Shown piece by piece: positions 26,691 through 33,648 of a DNA stretch of 40,994 nucleotides. The first letter of the stretch is position 1, and the number at the start of each line of letters is the position of its first letter. The notes below the pieces were generated by a model. It was given only the letters and a program-made list of their open reading frames with translations, ran no database searches and was not told the DNA's origin. Origin of the DNA: Pirellulaceae bacterium (lineage in GTDB: Bacteria; Planctomycetota; Planctomycetia; Pirellulales; Pirellulaceae). The stretch covers positions 24,345-65,338 of the forward strand of contig JAKVBY010000036.1 in the NCBI GenBank assembly GCA_022446825.1, in the 5' to 3' direction. A program made the position numbers and the translations under genes.

Positions 26691-27288
26691 TGCCACGCGT
26701 CTGTTGGAGCGATTCGAGCTAAGAAGAATTGAGAAGACGATAGGGTTCTGGAAAGATTGTTGTGGCAGTCTGTCGGCTGGCTTTGCCAGGCCGAGTGGCA
26801 TGCGTCGATTCTGGCGAAGTGTTTTGTCCGTGTTTTTATTGCCGACTGATGATGGCCGAGTGGCTTGCGAGGAATCCGGTTTCATAGCGAGGGGCGAGGG
26901 AGCCAGCAAAGAAAGCAGGTCTCCCGCTCTACGGGTCTACAGGTGTCGTTGGTCAGCCGAAAGGATGGTTGGAAACGCTGGAGGTTGTGTTTGCTCCTCG
27001 GGGTCGGATGGCGAGAAAAAATATGCACAAAGGTGGGAACTCTTTGTTTGCGTGGCGCGTCTAGAATTTAGAGCTGGTTACGTGCGGTTCGTGGAGAGGA
27101 CTGCTTTGACATGTGCTCGCATTCAAGCAATCAAAGATTTTTGGCCCAAAACATGTGCTGCCGTTTGGGTAACAGAATCGCTTGCAGGGATTTGTCGTGA
27201 GTGGTAGGAACTTTCACCAGGAAACTTGCTCCGTACATTCTTCCGTACGACAGTTCGTTCGATCTTGAAAAAAACAAGGAGCGCCTTT
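26691..27288. other. Intergenic region before the serpin gene
   Basis: About 598 bp. An open frame of 167 codons (26704-27207) exists, but its product is rich in Arg and Cys, has no domain or signal and no ribosome-binding site, so I do not call it a gene. The string GGCCGAGTGGC occurs twice (near 26791 and 26852). TTGACA at 27106-27111 has only a poor -10 partner. The last part should hold the serpin promoter. Confidence 0.4.
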
Positions 27289-28623
27289 ATGCGCTGGTTT
27301 TTAATTTGTTCTTTTTTTCTGGCATGCGTTGTTGGTTGTGACTCAGAATCTCCGCCTTTTCTCTCAACGGAAATCCCATTTTGGAATGAGCCGGATCTGG
27401 ATGTGACGATTTGTGATTTTCAACCAAGCCCTCCGAGCGATGCGGACTTGGAAGTTGCTTCGTCCGTAGGAGATGTCGTGGACGTTGCTCCTGTTGTGGA
27501 GGGTGGCAATCGATTTGCTCTGGACCTCTACCGACAGCTTCGTGAACAAGAAGGAAACCTCTTCTTTTCTCCGGCGAGTAGTTCGATTGCCTTAACGATG
27601 GCGCTGGCAGGCGCTTCTGGGAAGACGGCTCAAGCAATGAGGTCAACGTTGCATTTACAGATGCCCGAGGTCGAAATTCATCGAGTGATGCGACAGTTGC
27701 AATCTGCTTGGTCGCAAGCAAAGCAAAATCAGCCGGTTCAACTTCACATAGCAAGTCGCTTATGGGGAGACGATCGCCAGAATTTTTTAACGCCGTTTCT
27801 GGAAGTTACACGCCGGCAATATGATGCTCCCTTAGCACGTTTAGACTTTCGTCAGAGCGAAAACGCCCGCGAAGAAATCAACGACTGGACCGAACAGCAG
27901 ACCCAAGGCAAGATTCGAGATCTGATTCCGTCGGGAGCCATAAACACCGATACCCGCTTGGTATTGACGAATGCCATTTACTTTCAAGGGAACTGGTCGA
28001 CGGCCTTTAAGAAAAAAAGAACTCTTCTGAGGCCGTTTTATGTGACTCCGGAGGATAAGGTGCAAGTTCCCATGATGCAGCAAATCGGAAGATTTCATTA
28101 TGGCGAAAATGACGATCTTCAAATTTTGGAACTCCCCTACGGAGAAGGGGAAGTCTCCATGTTTGTCTTACTGCCGCGAAAGCGAGACGGTCTCAAGTCA
28201 GTCGAAGAAAAACTCAGCACAGAAAGCGTGAAGAAGTGGATCGGTCGTATGCAACCGAGAACCGACGTGCGCGTGTTTCTTCCCAAATTTAAACTGACGG
28301 CAGAATTGAATCTCGTGAAGGCCCTCGGCGCCTTGGGCATGACTTCAGCTTTTGATGAGCGAACAGCGGATTTTTCGGGCACCACAGGAAACCGTGACCT
28401 TTATATTTCTGCAGTGTTACACAAAGCATTTGTCGATGTTCACGAGGAAGGTACGGAGGCCGCAGCGGCGACGGGAATCGTTTTGAAAACCCGCTCTCTA
28501 GCTCCTGGAAAACCTAAGGAATCTCCCGTGTTTCGCGCGGACCATCCATTTGTGTTTCTCATTCGGGACAATATGAACGATGCGATTTTGTTTTTGGGGA
28601 GAATGGAGAAACCACCAACGTAA
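27289..28623 (+). CDS. Serpin-family protease inhibitor, lipoprotein
   Basis: A 444-residue serpin, a suicide inhibitor of serine (or cysteine) proteases. The ATG at 27289 is chosen over the open frame from 27226 because GGAG (27278-27281) sits 7 nt upstream and a lipoprotein signal follows immediately (lipobox Val-Val-Gly-Cys17, with Asp at +2). Serpin signatures are TNAIYFQGNW, ELPYGEGEVSMFVLLP, LPKFKLTAELNL and HPFVFLIRDNMNDAILFLG. The reactive-loop hinge HEEGTEAAAATG is fully canonical (Gly at P15, Thr at P14, four Ala at P12-P9), so the protein should be inhibitory. Counting from P15 places P1-P1' at Arg402-Ser403, predicting trypsin-like targets. Inferred role: guarding the cell envelope against proteases of competitors, predators or the host. 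No protease gene adjoins it. Confidence 0.93.
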   Translation: MRWFLICSFFLACVVGCDSESPPFLSTEIPFWNEPDLDVTICDFQPSPPSDADLEVASSVGDVVDVAPVVEGGNRFALDLYRQLREQEGNLFFSPASSSIALTMALAGASGKTAQAMRSTLHLQMPEVEIHRVMRQLQSAWSQAKQNQPVQLHIASRLWGDDRQNFLTPFLEVTRRQYDAPLARLDFRQSENAREEINDWTEQQTQGKIRDLIPSGAINTDTRLVLTNAIYFQGNWSTAFKKKRTLLRPFYVTPEDKVQVPMMQQIGRFHYGENDDLQILELPYGEGEVSMFVLLPRKRDGLKSVEEKLSTESVKKWIGRMQPRTDVRVFLPKFKLTAELNLVKALGALGMTSAFDERTADFSGTTGNRDLYISAVLHKAFVDVHEEGTEAAAATGIVLKTRSLAPGKPKESPVFRADHPFVFLIRDNMNDAILFLGRMEKPPT

Positions 28624-31517: not shown

Positions 31518-31806
31518 AAAACCCGTCCTGCTGGTGACATTCAATGCTGCTGATGACAGGTGTTGTTTTGTTTTCCGCTTGGTTTCCATTTCAACGCAAT
31601 GACGGTTTTGTTGAAAAAAGTCGGGCCGTCTCCCGAGTCAATGACACTCTGGCTGCCAGAGATGACAAGGACTTGCATTGTGAACTTTGCATCCAAGTAT
31701 CGAAGATGATTTGGCGACGGGCTGCAGCTCTGAAGAGAGGGGAACTTTCTGGATGCTTAGATTTGCAAATTCCACGCTAAATCAGTGCTTTATGGAGGGG
31801 TTCTCT

Positions 31807-33648
31807 GTGTTCGATGTTAAATTTTGTTTCGTTTTGTGTTTGGCGTTGGCGCTGACAGTGCCGTCGTTTGCACAGCCCAGAGGTTTTGCCGGACGAGAAT
31901 CAAACGGTAGTTTGCTCGAAATCGGTTCGACGTTGCCCGCAGTTAAGTTATTGGACGAGCAAGGTAAGGAATTTTCGACATCCGACCTGGGTGGCCAATA
32001 TGCGGTGCTCGTCTTTGGCTGCTTGACATGACCGCCTTTTCTCCGAAACGTCCCCAGTTTGGAGACGGTTGAACGTGATTTCGCGCCTCAAGGCGTCAAG
32101 TTCTATTACATCTATAAAGCCCTGGCTCACCCTGGGGCCAGTGGTTATATCACACCATTCACTCAAGCCGAGAGACTGATGCATGTGGCCGAGGCAAAGC
32201 ATCAGCTTGGTTCGCGAATTGACTGGTTGTGCGACACGATGGCGAACGACGCCAAGCATGCTTGGGGGGACGCGCCGAATTCGGAGTTTGTAATCGATCC
32301 GGCAGGCAAGATCGTGGTATCGCGTCGCTGGAGTCAACCAGATGAACTGCGACGCGATTTGGAAAAGCTCGTGGGGGAAGTTGAAAACCCCACCACGATC
32401 GCAGACCTTGGCATGCAGCCGCTCAAGGCACCACAAACTGCGCCCATGGGCGTTGTGCCCCGATTGGAGTTGCCCGGGAGGATGCACGCCCTCCGGGTCG
32501 AACGCGCCCCGCTGGTTGACGATGCGATCAGCGAGCCGTTGTATGTGAAACTGCGAGCCGAACTCGACCCAGAATATGAAAATGCGGCCGTTGGAAAACT
32601 CTATTTCGGCTTCTTTCTCGACCCACTCTACAAGGTCCATTGGAATAACGAGGTTGCCGCGGTCACTTATACAGTGGAACCCCCTGCGGGATTGGAAGTC
32701 ACTCCACTGCGTGGCGAGGGGCCGCAAGTGACAGAAAAGGCGGATGCGGATCCTCGTGAATTCCTACTTGAAATTTCAGGGGAATCGGAGGAACCAATGA
32801 AGGTCATTGTGCAATATTTTGCGTGTGACGATGCCGAGACCTTCTGTAAACCTGTTACCCAGCATTATCTGGTTTCACTGCAACGAGATCGCGACGGCGG
32901 GTCGCGGCGCACTGGACGAGGTCGGTCCCCCGGCTTTGCCGGTGGACCTCGGCCAAGCCGGCCGGAGTTTGGCGCTCGAGAAGGTTTGTCATTCGATTCG
33001 CAGATGCGGCGAGGAGTCACTGGAGATGAAGGACGTCGCAAGCGGCTGAAGCAAGCCATTGCCGTGTTTCGCGACTTTGATGCGGATCGAGATGGCACAC
33101 TGGATGCTGAAGAGTTTTCTCCCCTCGAGAATATACTTATTGACGTCGACACGAGCGGAGACGGGTTGGTTTCACTTCGCGAGTTGATGGATGTTCTCAA
33201 CCGAGTGAGTGTGCGATCGAGTCCGCAACCTGAGCGTCATGAAACGAGTCGTGTTTTATTGGCCACCATGGACCTGGATGGCGACGGTGTGCTGGCAGCG
33301 GAGGAACTCGTGCAGGCAGGTGATTCACTCCTGCAACTCGATCGCGACAAGGATGGTGAGATTTCTGCGGATGAGTTGGAATCAGCTACTCGAATGACCG
33401 ATGAGAGTCACCCGCCGCGTTCCTCCGACAATGGCAGGGCCAACCGTTTCGGGACCTTAGAGCGTCTGGACCGCAATGGCGATGGAAAAATCACCAAAGA
33501 GGAAGTGCCCGAACCGATGCAGCGTCGCTGGGACCGCATGGATCGTGACGGCAACGGTTTCTTGGATCAGGACGAACAGGCTTTTGTCGCTGAGCGGTTA
33601 CGGAAAGCCACGCGAGGCCAACGTCCGCAGCGACCTACGAGCGACTAG
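31807..33648 (+). CDS. Putative deiodinase-like selenoprotein with six EF-hands (in-frame TGA = Sec75)
   Basis: Read through the TGA at 32029-32031, this is one 613-residue exported protein. The GTG at 31807 follows GGAGGGG (31794-31800) and begins a signal peptide (FCFVLCLALALTVPSFA). Residues about 36-190 form a thioredoxin-fold domain with Cys72-Leu-Thr-Sec75-Pro-Pro-Phe, His108 in ALAHP and the segment CDTMANDAKHAWG followed by FVIDPAGKIV; this order matches iodothyronine deiodinases (T-U-P-P-F, EAHP, DxMxNxAxxAYG, and a final GKIV strand). Residues about 215-360 resemble a DsbD-alpha-like sandwich with Cys340 and Cys347. Six canonical EF-hand loops follow, at 425-436, 448-459, 489-500, 512-523, 555-566 and 579-590. 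A SECIS-like hairpin follows the TGA. Inferred role: calcium-linked extracytoplasmic redox or reductive dehalogenation chemistry. Alternatives are a nonsense-mutated gene or a sequencing error, but the motif and hairpin make Sec much more likely. Confidence 0.82.
32029..32031 (+). other. In-frame TGA predicted to encode selenocysteine (Sec75)
   Basis: Both flanking frames are the same frame (the downstream open stretch continues directly with Pro-Pro-Phe-Leu-Arg), and homologous active sites place Cys or Sec exactly here. Recoding needs SelA, SelB, SelD and tRNA-Sec, none of which is encoded in this window. Confidence 0.82.
32032..32068 (+). promoter_or_regulatory. Candidate bacterial SECIS element
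   Basis: TCTCC (32040-32044) pairs with GGAGA (32061-32065) and AAAC (32046-32049) with GTTT (32057-32060), with G32045 bulged. The 7-nt apical loop GTCCCCA (32050-32056) begins with GU and lies 18 nt after the TGA. CCG (32032-32034) can also pair with CGG (32066-32068). Bacterial SECIS elements lie just after the UGA, inside the coding region, and typically have a small loop with a G in its first two positions at about 16-37 nt distance, so all features fit. Confidence 0.75.

What the first reader, a model, noticed from the sequence alone, without database searches (positions are those of the whole stretch)
31807..33648. Deiodinase-like selenoprotein hidden as two ORFs
Seen: two open stretches lie in one frame, separated by a single TGA (32029-32031). 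The residues around it read Gly-Cys-Leu-Thr-[TGA]-Pro-Pro-Phe. Established: iodothyronine deiodinases carry Sec in a Thr-Sec-Pro-Pro/Ser-Phe context, and bacterial relatives often have Cys there. The downstream AHP motif and DTMxNxAKxAxG segment also match the deiodinase fold in order. Inference: standard gene callers will have split this into a short N-terminal fragment and a start-less C-terminal protein, hiding a selenoprotein. Motif Cys72-x-x-Sec75 combines a thioredoxin-type resolving Cys with the deiodinase-type Sec, so it may have oxidoreductase as well as dehalogenase potential.
Basis: partly seen in the sequence, partly recalled or inferred. Interest (0 to 1): 0.95.

Follow-up and report, generated by a model that had tools for sequence, protein, structure and literature searches.

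The report
Planctomycete selenoprotein split by a TGA
One bacterial gene that looks like two is almost certainly a single gene for a probably exported redox protein that carries the rare amino acid selenocysteine; it is distantly related to the enzymes that process thyroid hormone in animals and is fused to a possible built-in electron-donor domain and a calcium-binding tail.

Summary
Observation confirmed; selenoprotein reading strongly supported. TGA 32029-32031 splits one conserved frame (GTG 31807 to TAG 33648, 613 aa). 54 loci, window included, carry TGA at this place; 18 homologues carry Cys. The genome has selA, selB, selC and selD. In sampled relatives selA is found in 30 of 34 TGA-type and 0 of 15 Cys-only genomes. 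A hairpin 18-36 bases after the TGA shows synonymous covariation in TGA genes (95.7% of cells paired; Cys genes 50.8%). In one distant relative the gene follows selD-selB-selA-tRNA-Sec.

The first domain is a thioredoxin fold whose Sec aligns on the deiodinase Sec. The next resembles DsbD_N, with a conserved Cys pair; the tail has EF-hands. Likely role (inferred): a selenium-based thiol or peroxide reductase outside the cytoplasm, perhaps linked to its own DsbD_N-like domain. Deiodinase activity is unsupported, and Cys72 is not the thioredoxin resolving Cys.

Bacterial deiodinase-like selenoproteins are known since 2005. A 2021 paper reports deiodinase-like/EF-hand and Prx-like/PF11412 selenoprotein fusions separately. 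The CxxU form joining all three I found in no text seen: a new variant of a known kind.

The parts
31794..31800 (+). Shine-Dalgarno-like GGAGGGG, 6 bases before GTG 31807
   Evidence: read directly
31807..33648 (+). whole selenoprotein gene, 613 aa with Sec75, stop TAG
   Evidence: conserved across the TGA in 54 loci
31807..31875 (+). signal-peptide-like N-terminus (MFDVKFCFVLCLALALTVPSFAQ)
   Evidence: read by eye; no signal-peptide program was available
31921..32370 (+). thioredoxin-fold, deiodinase/AhpC-TSA-like domain
   Evidence: PF00578 33.1 bits, PF00837 25.6 bits; model mean pLDDT 88.4; Foldseek ResA TMt 0.80-0.87, deiodinase 2 TMt 0.77
32020..32022 (+). Cys72 codon, first residue of Cys-x-x-Sec
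   Evidence: invariant in the 29 rows of A2
32029..32031 (+). TGA read as selenocysteine, Sec75
   Evidence: TGA in 54 loci, Cys in 18 homologues; aligns on the deiodinase Sec position
32049..32067 (+). SECIS-like hairpin; stem 32049-32056 with 32060-32067 and a C/A mismatch, apical loop GTT 32057-32059
   Evidence: 95.7% of cells paired, 30 cells changed on both sides, 0/500 shuffles for these; two other measures do not exceed the shuffles; Cys homologues 50.8%
32452..32910 (+). DsbD_N-like beta-sandwich domain
   Evidence: PF11412 in 13 of 17 members at E<=1, best 1.4e-5, window 0.19; weak Foldseek hits to DsbD N-terminal domains
32824..32826 (+). Cys340 codon, first Cys of the DsbD_N-like pair
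   Evidence: invariant in A1 and A2
32845..32847 (+). Cys347 codon, second Cys of the pair
   Evidence: invariant in A2, over 90% in A1
33049..33600 (+). EF-hand tail
   Evidence: PF00036 77.1 bits, 6 stretches; extent taken by eye from the matches

Best explanation
The locus is one gene for a probably exported selenoprotein. Shown by comparison: the UGA at 32029 is conserved as a sense codon in a genome with a complete bacterial Sec system, with a conserved hairpin just downstream; reading it as selenocysteine is the only reading I know that fits. The first domain is a thioredoxin fold distantly related to deiodinases, with Sec at the catalytic place. Inferred: Sec75 attacks an oxidised substrate outside the cytoplasm (a disulfide or a peroxide), may form a Se-S bond with Cys72, and the Cys340/Cys347 pair of the fused DsbD_N-like domain takes or supplies the electrons, as in the periplasmic relay of DsbD (recalled). 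The EF-hand tail binds calcium and may stabilise or place the protein. My odds: selenoprotein 0.97; deiodinase-related thioredoxin fold 0.9; thiol or peroxide redox role 0.7; relay through the DsbD_N-like domain 0.5.
For: 54 loci with TGA at the same place and 18 homologues with Cys there. selC 69.1 bits, selB 370.7 bits, selA 560.2 bits, selD 275.3 bits in the own genome. Codon type tracks selA: 28 of 32 TGA-type and 0 of 14 Cys-only genomes of the order sample (Fisher p 1.3e-8), and 2 of 2 against 0 of 1 in the phylum sample. Hairpin with synonymous covariation, 50.8% paired in Cys homologues, 3 of 7 pairs left in the Cys form of G758. In L105 the gene follows selD, selB, selA and tRNA-Sec on one strand. 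Cys72, Sec/Cys75, Cys340 and Cys347 invariant in 29 chosen members, 9 of them Cys forms. Sec aligned on deiodinases 3 and 2. DsbD_N in 13 of 17. EF-hands. A 2021 survey reports a Prx-like selenoprotein fused to PF11412.
Against: No experiment. Two TGA genomes (G231, G285) have no selA or selB at the thresholds used; G231 has tRNA-Sec, G285 none of the three. By Rfam's own cut-off (47 bits) 2 of 14 Cys-only genomes also have a tRNA-Sec match (48.6 and 49.4 bits); I read these as other tRNAs without testing it. The 18 Cys forms of the tree are one clade, so the association rests on few independent events (G758 adds one). In the hairpin test two measures do not beat the shuffles: pairs changed on both sides (158/500) and further pair types (368/500); the stem was drawn from these same sequences; RNAalifold scores it weakly (-1.57 kcal/mol); the window alone folds more stably another way, -13.8 against -7.8 kcal/mol. 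The window's DsbD_N score is weak (12.2 bits, cut-off 25), no fold match is under E 1e-3, and a profile search of solved-chain sequences with this domain found no DsbD. The relay is untested. A simple EF-loop motif is lacking in the tail of 23 of 50 TGA rows and 18 of 18 Cys rows.
Confidence: 0.75

Rival explanations
1. A thiol peroxidase (peroxiredoxin-like): Sec75 is the peroxidatic residue and Cys72 resolves it; the other domains only serve recycling or location.
For: AhpC-TSA is the best-scoring Pfam family of the first domain (33.1 bits, cut-off 26) and hits 28 of 29 members. A 2021 survey reports a Prx-like selenoprotein, with U/CxxC, fused to PF11412.
Against: The PxxxTxxU motif given for peroxiredoxins in PMC13188914 is not present: Cys72 stands at the Thr place and there is no Pro at the Pro place (sequence). 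ResA-type folds rank above peroxiredoxins in the structural search.
Confidence: 0.25
2. A reductive dehalogenase, a bacterial deiodinase proper, acting on iodinated or brominated compounds.
For: Sec, the Thr before it, the following Pro-Pro-Phe, the AHP His and, in deiodinase 3, the DTM-N segment align with deiodinases.
Against: Score far below the deiodinase_rel cut-off (77.5 of 250 bits), while the same genome has a canonical member (403 bits). The acidic residues before AHP in deiodinases 3 and 2 (EEAHP, DEAHP) are replaced here (KALAHP). The conserved Cys pair of the second domain points to thiol exchange (inference).
Confidence: 0.1
3. Two genes, a pseudogene or a sequencing error: the TGA is a real stop.
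For: Only that table 11 stops there, and that G231 and G285 show no selA or selB.
Against: TGA at the same place in 54 loci, Cys at that place in 18 others, conserved protein on both sides, full Sec machinery, covarying hairpin.
Confidence: 0.02

Closest known systems
Bacterial deiodinase-like selenoproteins (PF00837; PMC1088965; NCBIfam NF038285)
   Same: Thioredoxin fold, Sec at the aligned place, both Sec and Cys forms, function unknown; fusion of deiodinase-like selenoproteins to EF-hands was reported in 2021 (PMC9402790)
   Different: Far below NF038285's cut-off; Cys at -3 (CxxU) where the 2022 and 2026 inventories list UxxC; DsbD_N-like domain; a canonical deiodinase-like TGA gene exists separately in the same genome (C94)
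Prx-like selenoprotein fused to PF11412 (there called DsbC), ocean metagenomes, PMC9402790
   Same: A peroxiredoxin-like Sec or Cys domain joined to the same Pfam family in one selenoprotein; may be the nearest relative in print
   Different: Reported with U/CxxC, here CxxU with Phe at the +3 place; no EF-hands or deiodinase kinship mentioned for it; its sequences and figure were not held, so identity could not be tested
Animal iodothyronine deiodinases 2 and 3 (9h48, 4tr3)
   Same: Aligned Sec and AHP His; Foldseek TMt 0.77 and 0.71
   Different: 21-23% identity over the match; acidic residues before AHP replaced; these chains (183-193 residues) are too short to hold the second domain or the EF-hand tail
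ResA/TlpA thiol-disulfide oxidoreductases and the DipZ C-terminal part (2hyx)
   Same: Best Foldseek hits by E-value; DipZ also joins a thioredoxin domain to a beta-sandwich (recalled)
   Different: Phe at the second CxxC place, Sec at the first; DipZ superposes poorly as a whole (TM about 0.4, rmsd 14)
DsbD N-terminal domain (PF11412; 3pfu, 1vrs)
   Same: Beta-sandwich with two closely spaced Cys near its C-terminal edge (Cys in DsbD recalled)
   Different: Weak score, C-x6-C in the window, fused to a Sec-thioredoxin domain

Membership tests
Bacterial selenoprotein | in-frame TGA conserved with coding sequence on both sides and Cys in homologues | tested here: met
   54 TGA loci, 18 Cys homologues; codon-position pattern
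Bacterial selenoprotein | selA, selB, selC and selD in the genome | tested here: met
Bacterial selenoprotein | SECIS-like hairpin after the TGA with a G in a small apical loop (feature as given in PMC1088965) | tested here: met
   control; caveats in the Against line; SelB binding not testable
Bacterial selenoprotein | selenium shown in the protein | not testable with these tools
   needs 75Se labelling or mass spectrometry
Iodothyronine deiodinase family (PF00837) | Pfam gathering score | tested here: inconclusive
   25.6 bits whole protein, 27.2 bits for residues 28-365, cut-off 27
NCBIfam NF038285 deiodinase_rel | curated cut-off 250 bits | tested here: not met
   77.5 bits, 43.5 for residues 28-365
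Iodothyronine deiodinase family (PF00837) | Sec and AHP His aligned | tested here: met
   Sec/Cys and His invariant in A2
Iodothyronine deiodinase family (PF00837) | deiodinase activity | not testable with these tools
   needs an assay
Peroxiredoxin (AhpC-TSA, PF00578) | Pfam gathering score | tested here: met
   33.1 bits, cut-off 26
Peroxiredoxin (AhpC-TSA, PF00578) | PxxxTxxU/C motif (as given) | tested here: not met
   Cys at the Thr place, no Pro at the Pro place
ResA/TlpA thioredoxins | CxxC with both residues | tested here: not met
   Sec at the first place, Phe at the second
DsbD_N (PF11412) | Pfam gathering score | tested here: not met
   window 12.2 bits, cut-off 25; 13 of 17 members hit at E<=1, best 1.4e-5
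DsbD_N (PF11412) | two Cys near the C-terminal edge (recalled as the redox pair of DsbD) | tested here: met
   Cys340 and Cys347 invariant in A2

The most novel reading that the evidence does not exclude
A selenoprotein family, seen here mainly in Planctomycetota, that packs a CxxU Sec-thioredoxin module of deiodinase kinship, its own DsbD-alpha-like reductant domain and often a calcium-binding tail into one exported chain: a self-contained, possibly calcium-tuned seleno-redox relay outside the cytoplasm. In some lineages it may be a main client that keeps the Sec system, since codon type tracks selA and in one genome the gene lies at the end of the sel cluster.
Probability: 0.3. Interest if true: 0.75.

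Novelty: new variant of a known kind. Interest (0 to 1): 0.5.

Why it matters
It adds a divergent multi-domain branch to the deiodinase-like selenoproteins, whose role in bacteria was left open in 2005 (PMC1088965), and gives a concrete test: a fused candidate electron partner. It also offers a natural comparison of Sec and Cys forms, with change of the hairpin and absence of selA in the Cys-only genomes sampled.

Tried and rejected
Sequencing error, pseudogene or two genes: rejected. Cys72 as a thioredoxin-type resolving Cys: rejected on the alignment. Conserved neighbourhood: of 13 flanking window ORFs tested, none recurs in more than 3 of 25 loci. Among neighbour ORFs of 29 stretches the largest cluster is a long upstream ORF in 7 loci (L058-L061, L063, L066, L079), not identified; other clusters of neighbours printed have 3 or 4 loci. 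In some searches the query labelled selA was, by mistake, a piece of selB, so selA itself was not sought there; its place in L105 comes. Rfam at gathering threshold found nothing in the window. No plasmid match. The PDB search with the whole protein mostly returns EF-hand proteins, with deiodinase 3 at E 3.8e-4. The careful tree did not finish; only the quick tree is used. One structural library was not available.

Dropped or not inspected: of the 49 matching order genomes, G176, G306 (TGA) and G308 (Cys) are distant relatives and left out of the counts. Of the 32 TGA-type genomes 29 were read at the codon; G303, G335 and G261 rest on the table's stop count, and G261's match is in two pieces with an added TAG. 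L076, L078 and L079 are cut at contig ends. The scan is pattern-based and not exhaustive.

Full report
Observation. The frame 31807-33648 is interrupted once, by TGA 32029-32031, in Gly-Cys-Leu-Thr-[TGA]-Pro-Pro-Phe.

One gene, conserved across the TGA. In a draw of 396 genomes of the order, 49 match residues 30-374 of P0001 at E<=1e-10. A pattern-based scan of the genome collection gave 26 loci. Of 56 loci L026-L081 (L026 is the window), 54 have TGA at the aligned place; one (L053) has Cys; one (L081) was a weak short match and was dropped. Of 20 further loci L082-L101, 17 family members have Cys (TGT or TGC) in GCLTCP. The other three are distant relatives: two TGA and one Cys. The 18 Cys forms make one clade in the quick tree (SH-aLRT 97).

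Sec machinery. The own genome (153 contigs, 94% complete) has selC (69.1 bits, anticodon TCA), selB (370.7 bits), selA next to it on C77 (560.2 bits) and selD (275.3 bits).

The codon tracks the machinery. Of the 396 order genomes, 125 have selA at E<=1e-60. Of the 49 matching genomes, 32 are TGA-type (G212 has a TGA and a Cys copy), 14 Cys-only and 3 distant. selA is in 28 of 32 and 0 of 14 (Fisher p 1.3e-8). Three of the 32 were not read at the codon; among the 29 read it is 27. Of the four TGA genomes without selA, G303 and G335 have selB and G231 and G285 do not; none of the 14 has selB at E<=1e-55 (22 genomes searched). tRNA-Sec at 63 bits or more is in 29 of 32 TGA genomes and 0 of 14 Cys-only ones; two of those 14 have matches of 48.6 and 49.4 bits, just over Rfam's cut-off of 47. 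G285 is the one TGA genome with none of the three. In a draw of 392 genomes of the phylum, 4 match at E<=1e-20: the own genome, two TGA forms with selA (G669, G732), and a one-contig genome, G758, with TGC in FGCLTCPPSMWN, 3 of 7 stem pairs left and no selA at E<=1e-20.

Sel cluster. In L105 (G669), on one strand: selD 9200-8217, selB 8106-6205, selA 6110-4740 (converted), tRNA-Sec 4682-4587, then the family member 4296-3319. selB and selD were not found in the 29 stretches (selA not sought there; L102, the same G669 gene with short flanks, is one of them).

Hairpin. On 47 distinct TGA stretches, the two column pairs with the highest corrected mutual information among all tested are 20-38 and 23-35 (0-based from the T of TGA), both at third codon positions and mostly C-G or U-A; the third, 27-30, is not a stem pair. 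Seven stem pairs: 95.7% of cells paired, 30 cells changed on both sides and a covariation score of 0.314, each with 0 of 500 shuffles as high; pairs changed on both sides (158/500) and further pair types (368/500) do not exceed the shuffles; sliding the partner by 1-3 columns gives 24-55% paired. The stem was drawn from these sequences, and shuffles do not remove relatedness. In 18 Cys homologues the same pairs give 50.8%, two of them never formed. Local folding energy is -7.0 on average in 54 TGA rows and -2.9 in 18 Cys rows. Loop columns G29 and T30 are invariant in 47 of 47. RNAalifold found five of the seven pairs by itself at -1.57 kcal/mol. The window alone folds more stably another way.

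Domains. Signal-like N-terminus (by eye). Domain 1: AhpC-TSA 33.1 bits, T4_deiodinase 25.6 (cut-off 27), NF038285 77.5 (cut-off 250); tail: EF-hands 77.1. In the 29 chosen members of A2: AhpC-TSA 28, Redoxin 26, T4_deiodinase 25, DsbD_N 5 at E<=0.1; NF038285 29 at E<=0.01. The profile finds deiodinase 3 first among solved chains (E 9.6e-6). The alignment puts Sec on its active-site residue and on the first Cys of ResA's CxxC. Cys72 lies on a Gly of ResA, and on a Cys of 2ywi, a protein of unknown function. The model of P0001 residues 28-365 has mean pLDDT 88.4 and pTM 0.83. Foldseek: DipZ C-terminal part first by E-value (TM about 0.4), ResA (TMt up to 0.87), deiodinase 2 (0.77), deiodinase 3 (0.71). 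Domain 2 alone: pLDDT 87.6; DsbD_N in 13 of 17 members at E<=1, best 1.4e-5, window 0.19. Foldseek hits to DsbD N-terminal domains (3pfu, 1jzd, 1l6p, 1vrs) lie among other beta-sandwiches at E 0.0059 or worse, none under 1e-3; a profile search of solved-chain sequences found no DsbD. Cys72, Sec/Cys75, Cys340 and Cys347 are invariant in A2. By a simple pattern an EF loop is in the tail of 27 of 50 TGA rows and 0 of 18 Cys rows.

Mechanism (inferred). Four conserved redox residues in two domains suggest that Sec75 acts on an oxidised substrate outside the cytoplasm and that Cys72 and the Cys340/347 pair pass electrons. Direction, donor and substrate are unknown. Deiodinase chemistry is not excluded but has no support beyond kinship.

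Known and new. Bacterial deiodinase-like selenoproteins, with Sec and Cys forms and a suggested redox role, were reported in 2005 (PMC1088965, passages) and again in 2008 (PMC2398784, passages). A 2021 ocean survey reports new selenoprotein fusions: deiodinase-like with EF-hand, and a Prx-like protein with U/CxxC fused to PF11412 (PMC9402790, passages and section 10). So both kinds of fusion are in print, separately, and the second could be a relative of this family; figures and sequences were not held. A 2022 review lists deiodinase-like with UxxC (PMC9312934, passages). A 2026 review lists 119 families; I read its Table 1 (PMC13188914, section 7 parts 1 and 2, and passages): deiodinase-like PF00837 with UxxC, and no entry for a CxxU deiodinase-like protein with DsbD_N or EF-hands. 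The NCBIfam scan of the window at E<=1 gave five models (NF038285, XopAW, lanmodulin, PRK12309, PRK03147), none over its cut-off. Selenoproteins in planctomycetes were described in 2016 (PMC4807772, passages and section 17); its table S9 could not be opened, so a member could be listed there. Text searches with selenoprotein, selenoproteome, selenocysteine or bacterial deiodinase and planctomycete, deiodinase, Rhodopirellula, pirellul, EF-hand, DsbD or thioredoxin terms gave listings; besides the papers named here I opened none, so absence from print is not shown. In PMC12013277 the terms sought gave no passage; PMC1242214 passages showed no such family.

Noticed in passing
L001 624-2009 minus (own genome, C94): A second in-frame-TGA gene: a canonical deiodinase-like protein (PF00837 123.4 bits, NF038285 403.1 bits) with EF-hands before the domain and FGSFT-TGA-GPY; a 7-bp hairpin follows the TGA. 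This fits the deiodinase-like/EF-hand fusion reported in 2021.
   Followed up: partly
L002 1402-2151 minus (own genome, C66): A Cys form of the deiodinase-like family (FGAYACSPF; PF00837 101 bits) in the same genome.
   Followed up: partly
L105 3319-9200 minus (G669): selD-selB-selA-tRNA-Sec followed by this selenoprotein gene on one strand.
   Followed up: partly
L104 (G758): TGC in place of TGA in a Sec-like setting, 3 of 7 stem pairs left, no selA in a one-contig genome: a likely natural Sec-to-Cys change.
   Followed up: yes
L025 (own genome, C132): selD lies in a 742-aa open frame with an N-terminal stretch that looks by eye like an NADH-dehydrogenase-type flavoprotein; Ndh-SelD fusions are known (PMC2398784).
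   Followed up: no
window 27226-28623 plus: A bacterial serpin (PF00079, 406.7 bits).
   Followed up: no
G300 C146:13141-15465: Two TGA-type copies side by side on one strand.
   Followed up: no
L068, L069, L072, L076: TGA-type members in bins labelled Acidobacteriota or Terriglobia and Gammaproteobacteria; transfer or misbinning not told apart.
   Followed up: no
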